NCBI GenBank assembly: GCA_913061415.1
Contig: CAJXUD010000013.1
Span: forward strand, 31,442-95,441
DNA: 64,000 nt
DNA from: an uncultured Oleispira sp.
GTDB taxonomy: Bacteria > Pseudomonadota > Gammaproteobacteria > Pseudomonadales > Oceanobacteraceae
Direction of reading: 5' to 3'
In this document: piece by piece, positions 1 to 8,270 of the stretch
Layout of the letters: each line of letters starts with the position of its first letter
Numbering within the stretch: position 1 is the stretch's first letter
Position numbers and translations under genes: made by a program
Notes under the pieces: model-generated
The model's input: only the letters and a program-made list of their open reading frames with translations
The model's database searches: none
Told to the model about the DNA's origin: nothing

Positions 1-420
1 CATGTCGTCGGTTAGAATGGTGCGGATATCGTGGTTTTTATGACCACTGCTTAATAACTCCATACCGTGAGCTAAAAAGGGATCCTTACGTTCTTTATCG
101 GTCAGTGAACTTTCTAGACCCGCAATGCCTTGTTGGCGATAAATCTGTGCCCATTCAATAAAACGCTCAACATGCTTGCGTAAATGTTTTGTATCAGTGG
201 GCGCATGAAACAAGGTTTCGAATATGGCTTTAACCGCCCTCAATACATCTGCGGTGGTATAACTGATCAACGACGCTGCAAACGTACTGCCCGCAACCAA
301 GGCAAAGCTCGATAGACTAACGAACATTAAATAATTATCAGTGCTTGAGACAATTGCAAATATAAACAGACTGATCGCAACCGTAATCCCAAATAACGTA
401 CTAAATGAAAATCGATTCAT
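1..420 (-). CDS. MotA/PomA-type stator subunit, 3' end beyond window
   Basis: Partial gene: the first 140 residues are read on the minus strand from ATG at 420, with AAGGA six bases upstream, and the frame is open to the window edge. Two hydrophobic helices (about 9-25 and 30-54) are followed by a cytoplasmic stretch typical of MotA. The motif KDPFLAHGMELLSSGH (112-127) matches the MotA 'PFL..GL.L...GH' signature, and DIRTIL follows. MotA/PomA subunits surround a MotB/PomB dimer and convert ion flow into torque on FliG. By hand alignment with E. coli MotA, Arg95 and Glu103 fall on Arg90 and Glu98, the FliG-contacting charges, with identical eight-residue spacing. The gene starts 9 bases after the FliF-FliG chimera ends, so it is the fourth gene of that operon. 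A motB would be expected further left, outside the window. Confidence 0.8.
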   Translation of the reverse strand, partial: MNRFSFSTLFGITVAISLFIFAIVSSTDNYLMFVSLSSFALVAGSTFAASLISYTTADVLRAVKAIFETLFHAPTDTKHLRKHVERFIEWAQIYRQQGIAGLESSLTDKERKDPFLAHGMELLSSGHKNHDIRTILTDDM

Positions 421-429
421 ACTTGATCC

Positions 430-2364
430 TTAATTTGGATTCGCAACAGCGATCAATTCTTCCATAGAGAAACGACCCGCTTTTAATACTTCTCGCATTT
501 TAGCCACGACTTGATTTCTCGCTTGCTCGGTCTGCTCTTGTGCTGCTTGGCCTTCTTGAACTTTTAATTCAGCAATAACCGCTGAGCGCAGTTTTACTGG
601 CAGGCCGGTTAATACATGTCGCTTAAATTCAATCGGGGTATTGCATAAAGACAGTGCCATTATGCTGCGATCAATCTCTCTGAGTTCATTCGCGATAACT
701 CGCTCTGGCGTTCTCATAAGATCGGCGTAGGTATAATAAACTTGGCGTAAACGATAATAAGTTTCTGGCTTATCAGATTTCAACGTTTTGAGTAAGCGAG
801 CCTCTTCTCCACTACTCATGGTATCGAGCATATTAATCAACACCGATAGACCATTGGCAGACACATTTTCGAAACTCGGAACATTCAATGATTTCTTAGC
901 TAAGCGGTCCGCAACATCTTTGAAGGTTGAAATCGGTAAGGTTTCAAATTCGCCTAATTCATAAGCCACTGCTGATTGCTCTCGCCCTTCTAAACGCTGT
1001 ACCAAACTGGCGGCGCGTTTAGCAGGTAGCTGAGAGAACACTAATGCTTTTATTCGTGTTTCTTCATCTTTAATGAGGTACAAGACTTGTGAATCATTTA
1101 ACTTATCTAAGAAAGCAAAAGGCGCGTTACCGGTTTCATCATCACCCAACGCTTTTAACATCTCATGTCGAAGGTTGTTCAGATAAGTGATTCGCTGTTC
1201 GTTATCCAACGGCTCTCTTGCTGCTTGTTCCGCAAAGGCCTCGGCATCTTCATTCGATATTTTGGGATATAAACTGCGAAACAGCCCTTTTCCTAATACT
1301 TCATGCAGCGCAGCCACATTTTGATTGTTGCCACTGTTTAGCTGCTCATTAATTCTCTGCTGAAATAACTGTGGCTGGCCTAGACCAATAGTCACCAATT
1401 CTTGGCGTAATTCGTTCAACTGTCGGCGCTTATCTCGATAATCATTATTAGCCGGTTCTTCAGCGGAAACATCTGGTGCAATAGTCGGCGTCGAGCTTGG
1501 CATATCATGACTATTTCTAGACTTGTCTTGCAGAGTAGCGCCTAAGCGCTTATTAAATAAATACAACGCCAGTAGCAATAGCAGCATCATAAAACCAAAG
1601 CAGCCCAACATGATCCAGCCTTGGTACTTCTGCCAACCTGCTAATGCGTCATTAGGATTTTCGACCTTTTTAAATGTTGTTCTAACAATGCTAAATGAAT
1701 CGCCACGCAGCTCATCTAAACGAGCTTTACGGGTAATTAAGTTACGAATAAATTCAACTTGATCATCTTTCAGCTCTTTATCTAAAACTAACGTAATCGT
1801 CAGTTTGTTAATCGTATTTCGATAGCCTAAGGTTTTATTTTTTATTTCTTCTATTTGCTTTTCTGCTTCTTGGCGTAAGGTTTCGGCATAATTTAATGCT
1901 TGCTGCCTTTCACTCTCAAGCTGCTGAATGCGAAGTTTAAGTGTATTAAGCTCGGCGCTATTATCTTCAAAAACCGGAAGATCACTCGTCGGCAATCCAG
2001 GCAAAGTCTCTTCAACTTCTCTTGGTTTATTGGTAATGGTAAAAGGCAGAGGCTTTGAGCTAAATACTGGACGTTCAGGAATATTTTTTGATCCTGTGCT
2101 AGACCTTTCTTTCACAATGGTTCGCGTCTTCTTCAGTTCAGCTTCAACATGAATAATAAAGCGGTTATTGCCAAGGTAGGCTTGAAGGTCACGATTTAAA
2201 CGCGCCTCCATCTCATCTTTAAAACGAACCTCTTCAACCTCGTCCCTTTTAGCGGGTACTTCAAAGGTTTTTCCCGTTTCGGCGTAAGCATTCACCGCGG
2301 GATATATCACTGAAATAATCAGGCATAATTTGATGGCAGTTTTTAACACTCTATTCATCATCAT
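430..2364 (-). CDS. FliF-FliG chimera (MS-ring periplasmic/TM part fused to FliG)
   Basis: 644 residues with a signal peptide (1-28, cleavage near AYA). Residues 50-84 and 178-233 resemble the two halves of the ring-building domain of FliF just before its second membrane helix. The first half contains 'LG..RFIIHVEAEL'; the second contains 'INKLTITLVLD' and 'LDELRGDSFSIV'. A proline-rich insert and a coiled coil (134-178) lie between them. One membrane helix (249-270) is followed by a cytoplasmic linker and then a FliG-like part. That part has PFAFLDKL (415-422), the degenerate EHPQ site as EETR (434-437), an armadillo-like middle (to about 490) and a torque-helix domain (500-640). By ungapped hand alignment Lys591 and Glu599 sit on E. 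coli FliG Arg281 and Asp289; Lys264 and Asp288 are not conserved. Canonical FliF (about 550) and FliG (about 330) are separate proteins. The start is the first of three ATGs, after GAGG. Confidence 0.82.
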   Translation of the reverse strand: MMMNRVLKTAIKLCLIISVIYPAVNAYAETGKTFEVPAKRDEVEEVRFKDEMEARLNRDLQAYLGNNRFIIHVEAELKKTRTIVKERSSTGSKNIPERPVFSSKPLPFTITNKPREVEETLPGLPTSDLPVFEDNSAELNTLKLRIQQLESERQQALNYAETLRQEAEKQIEEIKNKTLGYRNTINKLTITLVLDKELKDDQVEFIRNLITRKARLDELRGDSFSIVRTTFKKVENPNDALAGWQKYQGWIMLGCFGFMMLLLLLALYLFNKRLGATLQDKSRNSHDMPSSTPTIAPDVSAEEPANNDYRDKRRQLNELRQELVTIGLGQPQLFQQRINEQLNSGNNQNVAALHEVLGKGLFRSLYPKISNEDAEAFAEQAAREPLDNEQRITYLNNLRHEMLKALGDDETGNAPFAFLDKLNDSQVLYLIKDEETRIKALVFSQLPAKRAASLVQRLEGREQSAVAYELGEFETLPISTFKDVADRLAKKSLNVPSFENVSANGLSVLINMLDTMSSGEEARLLKTLKSDKPETYYRLRQVYYTYADLMRTPERVIANELREIDRSIMALSLCNTPIEFKRHVLTGLPVKLRSAVIAELKVQEGQAAQEQTEQARNQVVAKMREVLKAGRFSMEELIAVANPN

Positions 2365-2368
2365 TCCC

Positions 2369-3091
2369 CTACCTCAAGCGTGCCAAACTGGATTTAACTT
2401 GCTCCATATTCGGATCAATTTCTAACGCTTGCTGCCAGCTCGCTTTGGCTTCTGGTATCAACCCCATCTTGTAATAGATACTGCCTTTTAAAGCATGAGC
2501 TTGCGCAGAATCAGGAACCAGCTCTAGCGCTTTATTCGTTTCATCCAATGATTGCCAATACTGTTTTTTGTAGAAGAGCGATTGCGCACTGAATATATGC
2601 TTAGTAGATGCTTTAAAATCTTGAATTTTCTTTTGTTCAACCAGATCGTTGCGCTGCTCAAATTCTTCATGGTGCGCTTCCGCTTTTTCATCATTTAAGC
2701 TGGCAAGAACTTGCTTATTCTTTTCTGCAATTTCCTCAGCTGTTTTTTGTAAATCACCGTTACTAGAATCTTCCATCGCTCCCGCCGATTTTGGTAGCTT
2801 CATGCTGAAGCTCACATCACTATCACCGGCATCAAGGGTCATTAATACATCAAAGCCTGGCCCGTAACGGTGAATGTGCATCAAGCCATGATTCTTTTTG
2901 GCTAGATCTGCGACTTGCTTGCGCTTCTCAATGGTTTCTAATGAGATCTCTGCGGTAGCTTCTGTGCTTTGCTCTCCAATCCCCTTTAACTCAGGCTGAT
3001 AAGTCCCATACTTAGTCAGAGTTCGATTGGTTCTTTCATGCGTACAGGCACTGATTAATACTACTAATAATACGATCGCTAACTGTTTCAT
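2369..3091 (-). CDS. TPR lipoprotein of the motor-like operon
   Basis: 240 residues with a type II signal peptide; the lipobox is LISAC, with the lipidated cysteine at 16. A middle segment is rich in Glu and Lys (about 115-165) and likely coiled. The C-terminus (about 165-240) has two TPR units, including a typical 'SAQAHALKGSIYYKMGLI' helix pair. It is probably attached to the outer membrane facing the periplasm. AAGGA lies seven bases before the ATG. It is 9 bases downstream of the outer-membrane protein and 4 bases upstream of the FliF-FliG chimera, so co-translation is likely. By position it could be a scaffold, as PilF/PilW is for type IV pili or FlgP for sheathed flagella. That analogy is inference; no family was recognised. 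Confidence 0.7.
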   Translation of the reverse strand: MKQLAIVLLVVLISACTHERTNRTLTKYGTYQPELKGIGEQSTEATAEISLETIEKRKQVADLAKKNHGLMHIHRYGPGFDVLMTLDAGDSDVSFSMKLPKSAGAMEDSSNGDLQKTAEEIAEKNKQVLASLNDEKAEAHHEEFEQRNDLVEQKKIQDFKASTKHIFSAQSLFYKKQYWQSLDETNKALELVPDSAQAHALKGSIYYKMGLIPEAKASWQQALEIDPNMEQVKSSLARLR

Positions 3092-3100
3092 AATGTGTCC

Positions 3101-4162
3101 TTAAAAGCGCATGCCCAGTGTTAAGTCATAACTTGCACCGCCAAATGTGCCAGTCTCTTCATACGCAGTATCTTTTTTCCACTTAACGACGGTGTCTTGC
3201 ATATAGATCACGCCAAAGTCCATGAAGCCGTCTTTGAAAAAGGGAAACTCAAAGCCAAACCGAAAAACCAAGCTATTCGCATCATTAAAAAATGATTGCC
3301 CAATACCTAAATACACCTTGGTTTCTAAGACATCATCCAATGAAGAGACATCGGCAATGATTCGTCCTTCTAGGTTGTAACCACTTAGGTCAAAAATATC
3401 TCCAGATGAGTAGTTAGCAAAGTATTCAAGGCCTAAAGTGTATTCAACATTTTCGTTTAGCCCAGTGCTTTCTCTACGTCGAATACCCAATACGGTTGCG
3501 CCATTTAGCTCAACATCGTCAGCGGCAACAAGGCCTTTCCGTTCTCCTTTAATGCCCCAAGCGCCAACAATGACTTCATACTGAACCTTGTCAAAATCTT
3601 CTAGCTCAGCTTCTTTTGTTGTTTTTTTAGAATATTCTTTCAGCCATAGCAGTTCATTATTGCCACCATCCACTAAACGCAAATTAATGGTGAATTTATC
3701 CTGATGTACCGAAGCACTCCAAAACATAAAGGCATCCGCTCGTACTTTCTTTGATAAGACTCGTAACTCTTGGTTAGTTTCGGCGGCTTGCGATATTTTA
3801 AGCTCGTCTTCTGCCATCATTACTTTGGTGGTTCTACATTCAATACATTGAATCACCTCAAAGCGACCACTTTCCATTAAGCGCCCCATCAGTTTGTTTT
3901 CAATCATTTGATGAACTTGCTTAGGAATTAAGCGATGTAAGCGATCGCCATTATGGTAAAGCGCGATGCGTTTAACCTCTTGGTCTAAGTCGATCAGTTC
4001 TTCTAAGACTAGGGTCTTATCATCATCCAATAATTGCCCAAAGCCGGTATAAAGCGTTGCCGGGGGCTCGGCTATCAGTGGCAGTTCAGACTCCGCCGCA
4101 TAAGCATAATTGATCGATAGCAGCAGACCGATACACAGTAGTTTTATATTTCGCACAAGCAT
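3101..4162 (-). CDS. FlgO/CsgG-like outer-membrane protein with C-terminal barrel
   Basis: 353 residues from the chosen start. An ATG two codons upstream (4168) directly abuts AAGGA, whereas the ATG at 4162 has proper six-base spacing. The signal peptide ends near AYA. The N-terminal half looks like the alpha/beta fold of FlgO, CsgG and LpoB: a helix 'QMIENKLMGRLMESGRFEV', then 'ADAFMFWSASV' and 'FTINLRLVDGGNNELLW'. The C-terminal half (about 220-353) is made of alternating amphipathic strands and ends in YDLTLGMRF, the terminal phenylalanine typical of outer-membrane barrels. It is the first gene of the motor-like operon. In vibrios FlgO, FlgP and FlgT build outer-membrane rings around the flagellar motor, so an outer-membrane anchor or exit ring is a reasonable guess. 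The barrel extension is unusual for FlgO. Confidence 0.65.
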   Translation of the reverse strand: MLVRNIKLLCIGLLLSINYAYAAESELPLIAEPPATLYTGFGQLLDDDKTLVLEELIDLDQEVKRIALYHNGDRLHRLIPKQVHQMIENKLMGRLMESGRFEVIQCIECRTTKVMMAEDELKISQAAETNQELRVLSKKVRADAFMFWSASVHQDKFTINLRLVDGGNNELLWLKEYSKKTTKEAELEDFDKVQYEVIVGAWGIKGERKGLVAADDVELNGATVLGIRRRESTGLNENVEYTLGLEYFANYSSGDIFDLSGYNLEGRIIADVSSLDDVLETKVYLGIGQSFFNDANSLVFRFGFEFPFFKDGFMDFGVIYMQDTVVKWKKDTAYEETGTFGGASYDLTLGMRF

Positions 4163-4278
4163 CAACATTCCTTAACCCTGATGTTTTTTTCAGATTTCTA
4201 ATGTCAGCATAGTTCAGATATTTAGCTTCGAGGACAAATTCGAACAATTTGCTATACTTTTAATCTAACGGAGGATTT

Positions 4279-7841: not shown

Positions 7842-8270
7842 ATGAAGACGAATAATAAACACATAATCGCCTTAATAATCATGAGCTTAACTCCAGTACT
7901 AAGCTGGGGGGTGAACCCTCATGACGAATACTATGCAGATGATATTTTTACTGCGATTAATGAAGCGAAAAAAAGACCGCATCATTACGACTACAGTACG
8001 GCCAAACGCTACAACCGCTCTACGACGCAAAGCCTTGATATTCCTAGACTTTTAAATAAAGAGATGAGTATTACCAGCATTGATAGTAAGGATGAAAATT
8101 TGGTTACCGCCGCCGATACTCCGATCAGTAATCAGCACCAAGAGGCCTATGAAGTTAATGATGATGGGGTAACAGAAGTGAGAGCTTTGCCGATTAATAC
8201 AGTGTCACCACTGATTAGTAATCCGAACGTTATTTCACCCAATGTTAGAACAAATATCATCGCCCGCTGA
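7842..8270 (+). CDS. exported protein, paralogue 2 of a tandem pair
   Basis: 142 residues with a signal peptide ending near residue 23. It shares with its upstream neighbour an N-terminal block 'YYADDIFTAINEAKKRP' and the motif YNRSTTQSLDIPRLLNKEMS. The remaining C-terminal part is short and unlike the neighbour. AGGTAA precedes the start. The shared blocks point to tandem duplication followed by divergence outside the two motifs. Function unknown; the mature protein is probably periplasmic. Confidence 0.62.
   Translation: MKTNNKHIIALIIMSLTPVLSWGVNPHDEYYADDIFTAINEAKKRPHHYDYSTAKRYNRSTTQSLDIPRLLNKEMSITSIDSKDENLVTAADTPISNQHQEAYEVNDDGVTEVRALPINTVSPLISNPNVISPNVRTNIIAR

What the first reader, a model, noticed from the sequence alone, without database searches (positions are those of the whole stretch)
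1..4162. A flagellar-motor-derived operon without a flagellum
Four genes are packed in one operon (gaps 9, 4 and 9 bases): FlgO/CsgG-like outer-membrane protein, TPR lipoprotein, FliF-FliG chimera, and MotA. No other flagellar gene (export apparatus, rod, hook, C-ring FliM/FliN) is visible in the 60 kb to the right. The parts are exactly those needed for a stator, an inner-membrane ring/rotor and an outer-membrane contact. I infer an ion-driven envelope-spanning motor that does something other than turn a flagellar filament, for example transport, surface movement or force transfer to the outer membrane. I know of no described system with this composition.
Basis: partly seen in the sequence, partly recalled or inferred. 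Interest (0 to 1): 0.93.

Follow-up and report, generated by a model that had tools for sequence, protein, structure and literature searches.

The report
Flagellar motor without export or filament
A five-gene operon in relatives of marine oil-degrading bacteria encodes the rotor and stator of a flagellar motor plus two predicted outer-membrane-side proteins, but no export machinery, rod or filament; since the whole set also occurs in a draft genome in which two flagellar export genes were sought and not found, it is likely a separate ion-driven motor, predicted to push on the outer membrane.

Summary
The operon is longer than the window showed: outer-membrane protein, TPR lipoprotein, FliF-FliG chimera, MotA and, just left of the window, MotB. 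The chimera is real: its profile matches solved FliG (E 2e-27) and FliF (9e-10), but only FliF's RBM3/collar part. Stator key residues are kept, and so is the rotor's charge pair in most members; the FliM-binding motif is changed in 48 of 48. The outer-membrane protein is modelled as an LpoB/CsgG-like domain plus an 8-strand barrel. The five genes keep one order in 18 of 18 loci from named records and are together, though reshuffled, in a distant genome. The title's 'without a flagellum' is wrong for this genome, which has a normal fli/flh/mot cluster on another contig; but two distant members (93% and 98% complete) show no FlhA, FliP or ordinary FliG, and one of them (93%) carries the whole cassette with its only MotB match. 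The chimera's FliG part forms its own branch apart from flagellar FliG (100/100). I read it as an independent rotary motor, the mirror image of the injectisome: motor kept, export lost. What it turns is unknown; force on the outer membrane is my best guess. I found no description in print.

The parts
1..420 (-). MotA-type stator gene, 5' part; whole protein 267 aa at L009:17059-17862; MotB follows outside the window at L009:16379-17059
   Evidence: Pfam MotA_ExbB 92 bits, MotB OmpA 63 and MotB_plug 54 bits; 10 of 10 PDB matches of MotA are flagellar MotA/PomA
430..2364 (-). FliF-FliG chimera (rotor), 644 aa
   Evidence: Pfam; PDB profile; AF2 model pLDDT 76.7, pTM 0.32; Foldseek FliG 3hjl 7e-11, FliF S-ring matches only 3e-3 and weaker
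1672..2187 (-). FliF RBM3/collar region, residues 60-231, periplasmic by prediction; holds an invariant LPG motif
   Evidence: YscJ_FliF_C; 6scn residues 234-534; LPG 121-123 invariant in three alignments
1846..1959 (-). predicted long helix inserted in the ring domain, residues 136-173
   Evidence: AF2 secondary structure
1558..1614 (-). predicted trans-membrane helix, residues 251-269
   Evidence: hydropathy scan; helix 237-284 in AF2
880..1092 (-). FliG middle domain, residues 425-495; the place of the FliM-binding EHPQ motif (motif recalled) reads EETR
   Evidence: Pfam; alignments
466..786 (-). FliG C-terminal torque domain, residues 527-633; K591 and E599 stand at E. coli R281 and D289
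   Evidence: Pfam; alignments
2369..3091 (-). TPR lipoprotein (predicted), 240 aa, Cys16 invariant in 16 of 16
   Evidence: TPR Pfam matches; alignment
3101..4168 (-). predicted outer-membrane protein, 355 aa
   Evidence: AF2 pLDDT 71.7, pTM 0.48; fold searches; C-terminal Arg-Phe in 17 of 17
3620..4036 (-). LpoB/CsgG-like domain, residues 45-183
3104..3592 (-). OmpA-type beta-barrel, residues 193-355

Best explanation
A five-gene operon encodes a flagellar-type rotor (one protein joining a FliF ring domain to FliG), its own MotA/MotB stator, a predicted TPR lipoprotein and a predicted outer-membrane beta-barrel protein, with no export, rod, hook or filament gene among the five, and it likely works as a self-contained ion-driven rotary motor whose torque would be passed to the outer membrane rather than to a flagellum. 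Shown: gene content, order and conservation; FliF and FliG homology; kept stator residues; the whole cassette in one draft genome, and the chimera in a second, in which no FlhA, FliP or ordinary FliG was found. Predicted: the chimera would sit with its RBM3/collar part in the periplasm, one membrane helix, and FliG in the cytoplasm, forming an S-ring-like ring. Inferred: MotA units anchored to peptidoglycan by MotB would turn this ring through FliG; the helices inserted in the ring domain would reach the TPR lipoprotein and the LpoB/CsgG-like domain of the barrel protein, so that ring rotation pulls or turns outer-membrane parts against the cell wall. The changed FliM-binding motif suggests a motor without a FliM/FliN switch, so it probably turns one way.
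For: Homology of the chimera. Stator: MotA residues at the places of E. coli R90, P173 and P222 kept in 22 of 22, of E98 in 20 of 22; MotB membrane Asp in 22 of 22 (placing by alignment and recalled motifs). Rotor partner residues: K/R at 591 in 48 of 48 and D/E at 599 in 47 of 48 chimeras of A3; the contacts R90/D288-D289 and E98/R281 are as printed in PMC12505986 (passages). FliM motif: the Gln of EHPQ is K/R in 48 of 48. Operon: 18 of 18 loci in one order, G125 and G345 in the same order, G377 all five but reshuffled. Independence: FlhA in 26 of 28 chimera genomes, not in G345 and G422, which also show no FliP and no FliG_C but the chimera's; G345's only MotB_plug match is the cassette's. 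One origin: 17 chimeras against 16 flagellar FliGs, split 100/100. Outer-membrane protein fold. An engineered Salmonella FliF-G fusion-deletion mutant rotates (PMC9389320, passage).
Against: No experiment; contact between the parts is inferred from gene clustering. In the window's family 24 of 24 chimera genomes also have an ordinary FliG and FlhA, so a role beside the flagellum is not excluded there. Far members weaken the torque reading: in the wider alignment A6, D/E at 599 stands in 9 of 13 and K/R at 591 in 12 of 13; the acids at 598/599 are S/T in G377 and Y/T in G422, and G422 also lacks the basic residue; the E98 place is Ser in G125 and Asp in G377. G422 has no MotB_plug match anywhere and no MotA, MotB or recognisable outer-membrane gene beside its chimera (MotA was not sought elsewhere in it), so it is not a full cassette. 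The flagellum-free full cassette thus rests on one draft, G345, 93% complete in 810 contigs. No N-terminal hydrophobic stretch passed my cut-off in the G345 and G422 chimeras. AF2 pTM is low (0.32 and 0.48).
Confidence: 0.55

Rival explanations
1. It is an accessory module of the normal polar flagellum, for example an extra rotor or stator tier or an outer-membrane collar akin to the FlgO/FlgP/FlgT rings.
For: 24 of 24 chimera genomes of the window's family also have an ordinary FliG and FlhA, as do G125 and G377; the outer-membrane protein has FlgT_M/FlgO similarity, below cut-off; genera of the cassette make giant flagellins (PMC6248924, passages).
Against: The cassette is complete in G345, where no FlhA, FliP, ordinary FliG or second MotB_plug match was found; 17 of 20 family genomes without the chimera have an ordinary FliG (some of these drafts are incomplete), so flagella here seem not to need it; it lies on another contig than the flagellar cluster; no sigma-28 or sigma-54 site stands out upstream.
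Confidence: 0.2
2. It is a rotary or linear force generator for surface gliding, where the turning ring drags outer-membrane adhesins.
For: Composition from inner to outer membrane with a barrel protein; a proton channel homologous to flagellar stators powers gliding of Myxococcus (abstract of PMC9120999 in the listing); an inverse-autotransporter-like gene lies near the cassette in G345.
Against: No adhesin is among the five genes, and conserved neighbours other than the window's were not looked for in the related loci (one search compared 12 window-side genes only). The stator is of flagellar MotA type, not of the AglRS group, which PMC12505986 puts with the generic transporters (passage).
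Confidence: 0.15
3. It is an envelope-maintenance or division motor of the Tol-Pal or Lpo kind: the force acts on peptidoglycan synthesis or outer-membrane constriction.
For: LpoB-like domain of the barrel protein; a Sel1 protein beside the cassette in G377 with a SPOR domain, 22.4 bits against a cut-off of 21; OmpA-type, probably peptidoglycan-binding domain of MotB.
Against: The LpoB fold is shared with CsgG, TolB-N and flagellar FlgO/FlgT (recalled; LpoB, TolB and PelBC are among the matches), so it tells no function; none of the window's five genes has Sel1 or SPOR domains, and the related Sel1 protein of G422 has no SPOR match.
Confidence: 0.15
4. It is an anti-phage system like Zorya.
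For: MotB matches ZorB models (best 1.5e-19).
Against: MotA matches ZorA only at 3e-3 and the other three proteins match no Zorya gene; in the related loci it sits beside the fumarase gene (16 of 18; the other two contigs end too soon), unlike a mobile defence gene.
Confidence: 0.03

Closest known systems
Bacterial flagellar motor (MS-ring FliF, FliG, MotA/MotB stator)
   Same: FliF RBM3/collar homology, FliG M and C domains, MotAB with the membrane Asp, plug and OmpA domains
   Different: FliF and FliG are one protein; RBM1, RBM2 and FliF's first membrane helix are not matched; FliM motif changed; no export, rod, hook or filament gene among the five, and no FlhA or FliP found in two genomes
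Type III secretion injectisome
   Same: Derived from the flagellar line and reduced (recalled)
   Different: The injectisome keeps the export apparatus and lacks the MotAB-FliG motor (recalled); this keeps the motor and lacks export
Agl-Glt gliding machinery of Myxococcus, and GldLM
   Same: Ion-driven channel unit working with envelope-spanning parts (recalled)
   Different: Those have no FliF or FliG rotor (recalled); AglRS belongs to the generic transporters (passage), whereas this MotA is flagellar in type
FlgO/FlgP/FlgT and LpoB
   Same: LpoB-like fold of the outer-membrane protein's first domain; FlgT_M and FlgO similarity below cut-off
   Different: Here it is joined to a C-terminal 8-strand barrel and encoded with rotor and stator

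Membership tests
bacterial flagellum | MotAB stator with plug, membrane Asp and OmpA-type domain | tested here: met
bacterial flagellum | FliG M and C domains | tested here: met
bacterial flagellum | full FliF with RBM1, RBM2 and a membrane helix before them | tested here: not met
   only FliF residues 234-534 matched; in the window's chimera a hydrophobic stretch at 6-24, signal-like by eye (no signal predictor run), and one at 251-269, close to the ring domain on both sides, against 44-62 and 470-488 in the cell's own FliF
bacterial flagellum | type III export gate (FlhA, FliP) with the system | tested here: not met
   matches in this genome lie only on C6; none in G345 and G422
bacterial flagellum | FliM-binding EHPQ motif of FliG (motif recalled) | tested here: not met
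   48 of 48 chimeras have K/R at the Gln; three hold an E-T-P-Q string elsewhere (near 409 or 606); E-x-PQ present in 11 of 12 flagellar FliGs examined
bacterial flagellum | rod, hook and filament | not tested
   none among the five genes; no model search for them was run in any genome
5:2 ion-driven rotary channel units (MotAB/ExbBD class) | MotA-type A subunit with a MotB-type B subunit encoded together | tested here: met
5:2 ion-driven rotary channel units (MotAB/ExbBD class) | five A around two B subunits, rotation | not testable with these tools
   needs cryo-EM
Zorya anti-phage system | ZorA, plus ZorC/D or ZorE | tested here: not met
   PADLOC on the five proteins: ZorB-like MotB; MotA to ZorA only 3e-3; for the other three nothing but HEC-07 at 4e-3 on the chimera
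Agl/TolQR/ExbBD transporters | TolQ/ExbB-type channel subunit | tested here: not met
   10 of 10 PDB matches flagellar; NCBIfam TolQ 19 bits against MotP 165, itself below its cut-off of 394
injectisome | type III export gate | tested here: not met
   FlhA and FliP families match only the flagellar cluster on C6; a secretin was not sought

The most novel reading that the evidence does not exclude
A third machine of the flagellar family: besides the flagellum (motor plus export) and the injectisome (export without motor) there is a motor without export, a free-standing rotary engine that turns a reduced FliF-FliG ring to do mechanical work on the outer membrane, and that lives on in gammaproteobacteria that have no flagellum.
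Probability: 0.5. Interest if true: 0.95.

Novelty: categorically new. Interest (0 to 1): 0.88.

Why it matters
If true, the flagellar rotor-stator engine is a separable module that evolution has used for something other than filaments. That would bear on how the flagellum came together (motor and export as separate parts), give a small rotary motor (one rotor protein, one stator) for torque studies without the many-protein basal body, and add a new way for bacteria to move force across the envelope.

Tried and rejected
Plasmid carriage: tblastn of the chimera in 72,556 plasmid records gave one match, an ordinary FliG of Arthrobacter; phage records were not searched. Flagellar regulation: best sigma-28 and sigma-54 matches upstream of the operon in the window and 16 of 18 loci (two too short) were about as good as in shuffles; L015 (sigma-28) and L029 (sigma-54) reached the shuffle minimum; both consensus patterns are recalled. 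Anti-phage reading. The class-wide search with the broader profile A6 gave the same four genomes and 4 further matches, all frames of 336-353 residues matched only over the FliG part, so taken as ordinary FliG and not counted. A search for paralogues of the C6 flagellar genes on C13 by blastp found only the cassette MotA and MotB and one other pair, and missed the chimera, so it is too weak to count. Fold-search rows for the outer-membrane protein are dominated by the barrel. The part of the chimera before FliG_M (residues about 306-410) stayed undecided: helical in AF2, with FliG_N matches in some members that lie over the FliG_M region or below cut-off. A profile search with distant members added few chimeras, the rest being ordinary FliG (15 matches). 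G012's stretch (L044) has the contig length and gene lay-out of L027 and was not counted again.

Literature: no description found in eight searches of the held library, of which searches showed 20 of 47, 37, 105 and 24 papers; most subscription papers are not held. Papers were seen as listings or passages only, none in full.
Full report
What is there. The window is G000:C13:31442-95441 of a 3.65-Mb, 99.5% complete draft genome. The four genes lie as described. Taking the DNA left of the window shows that MotA is 267 residues and is followed, with a one-base overlap (TAATG), by a MotB of 226 residues. Downstream follow a PhoX-like phosphatase (71 bits) and a protein with only weak P460 similarity; upstream lie a divergent 121-residue gene, secreted by eye, and a fumarase gene, named by eye. 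The closest named relatives of the chimera are Oleispira sequences, 79-80% identical; unnamed ones reach 96%.

The chimera. Pfam finds YscJ_FliF_C, FliG_M and FliG_C above their cut-offs. A profile of 48 members (window, 44 proteins, 3) finds FliG structures (3hjl, 2e-27) and FliF (6scn, 9e-10, profile 39-322 on FliF 234-534). AlphaFold2 gives mean pLDDT 76.7 with low pTM 0.32; Foldseek ranks full-length FliG first (7e-11) and FliF S-ring structures only at about 3e-3 to 1e-2. Only the RBM3/collar section of FliF is matched. The window's chimera has hydrophobic stretches at 6-24 (signal-like by eye; no signal predictor was run) and 251-269; with eight other members scanned, the N-terminal stretch passed my cut-off in 7 of 9 and failed in the G345 and G422 forms, the inner one in 9 of 9. 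The cell's own flagellar FliF has its helices at 44-62 and 470-488. An LPG motif in the collar insertion is invariant in three alignments, followed in the window's protein by a predicted 38-residue helix.

Is it still a motor? PMC12505986 (passages) gives the stator-rotor contacts as R90 with D288-D289 and E98 with R281 in E. coli. Among 22 cassette MotAs (window, 18 loci, G125, G377, G345) the R90 place is Arg in 22, the E98 place Glu in 20 (Ser in G125, Asp in G377), two channel prolines are kept in 22; the MotB membrane Asp is kept in 22 (E. coli numbers are placed by alignment and recalled motifs). In the 48 chimeras of A3, position 591 (R281) is K/R in 48 and 599 (D289) D/E in 47; in the wider 13-row A6 it is 12 and 9 of 13. 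Singly, G125 has K with D,Q; G345 R with E,E; G377 K with S,T; G422 T with Y,T. So the torque interface is kept in the main family and in G345, and partly or wholly lost in the far members G377 and G422. The FliM-binding EHPQ motif (recalled) has K/R for Gln in 48 of 48; three rows have an ETPQ string at other places. An E-x-PQ motif stands in 11 of 12 flagellar FliGs examined.

Conservation and reach. A scan of genome contigs gave 19 relatives in 18 loci, with record titles naming Oleispira, Thalassolituus, Thalassobium, Oleibacter, Oceanobacter, Bermanella, Saccharospirillaceae, Oceanospirillaceae and an unnamed gammaproteobacterium; 18 of 18 carry all five genes in one order on one strand (two are cut at the contig end, one chimera frame ends early), 16 of 18 with fumarase on the same side. 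These samples overlap with each other and probably with the named records. Protein searches found 198 relatives of the window's chimera (120 listed, only the best candidates scored) and 15 for the G377 form, itself included. A tree of 17 chimeras and 16 flagellar FliGs puts all chimeras on one side of a branch with 100/100 support (midpoint root, and the program warns of long branches, mostly among the flagellar rows and in the G422 form). So one origin is likely, and it is not a recent copy of the host's own FliG.

Independence from the flagellum. The window's genome has a normal cluster on C6 (FliF, FliG, FliM/N, FliPQR, FlhBA, FlhF, MotCD; named by eye, with FlhA, FliG and FliP also by model). 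It has four MotB_plug matches, the cassette's among them. All 24 family genomes with the chimera have an ordinary FliG and FlhA. But of 28 chimera genomes tested, 26 have FlhA and two have not: G345 (93% complete) and G422 (98%). Neither shows FliP; in both the only FliG_C match is the chimera's. G345 carries the five genes in the standard order and its only MotB_plug match is the cassette's. G422 is different: TPR lipoprotein, a FliF-like protein without FliG, the chimera and a Sel1-repeat protein, with no MotB_plug match in the genome. G377, which has FlhA, carries MotA, MotB, outer-membrane protein, TPR and chimera in that order, preceded by a Sel1 protein with a SPOR domain just above its cut-off; this Sel1 protein is 34% identical to that of G422.

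Reading. Genes that stay together through a reshuffled order, and in a genome without the flagellar markers sought, argue for a working unit that does not need a flagellum. The kept stator residues argue for an ion-driven stator; the kept FliG charges argue that it acts on the chimera. PMC9389320 (passage) notes a Salmonella FliF-G fusion-deletion mutant that rotates, so a fused ring can turn. What the ring drives is inferred: with no rod or export channel encoded, the parts placed to receive torque are the collar insertion, the TPR lipoprotein and the barrel protein. I therefore favour force on the outer membrane, with surface movement or envelope maintenance as possible ends.

Limits. No experiment, no complex prediction, low pTM, drafts rather than closed genomes, one phylum sampled, three to four flagellar markers sought rather than all, and far members with lost torque residues. 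The claim 'motor-derived cassette not tied to a flagellum' is stronger than the claim 'motor acting on the outer membrane'.

Noticed in passing
window:4279-4644 (+): Small gene of 121 aa, secreted by eye, divergent from the operon, found beside it in 8 of 18 related loci; no Pfam family above cut-off.
   Followed up: partly
window:7284-7826 and 7842-8270 (+): Two tandem proteins that look secreted and share a YNRST-like motif by eye; no Pfam match.
   Followed up: no
L050:2660-3952 (+), G422: A FliF-like protein without a FliG part beside the chimera (blastp to the chimera's ring part 1e-5); perhaps a second ring protein in that lineage.
   Followed up: partly
L048:12974-14545 (-) and L050:6331-7827 (+): Related Sel1-repeat proteins beside the chimera in G377 and G422, the first with a marginal SPOR domain; possible sixth part in the far branch.
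   Followed up: partly
L049:6486-7988 (-), G345: Protein with an inverse-autotransporter beta-domain match near the cassette.
   Followed up: no
genera of the cassette: Several (Oleispira, Thalassolituus, Oleibacter, Bermanella) are the ones reported to have large or giant flagellins (PMC6248924, passages); whether cassette and giant flagellin go together was not tested.
   Followed up: no
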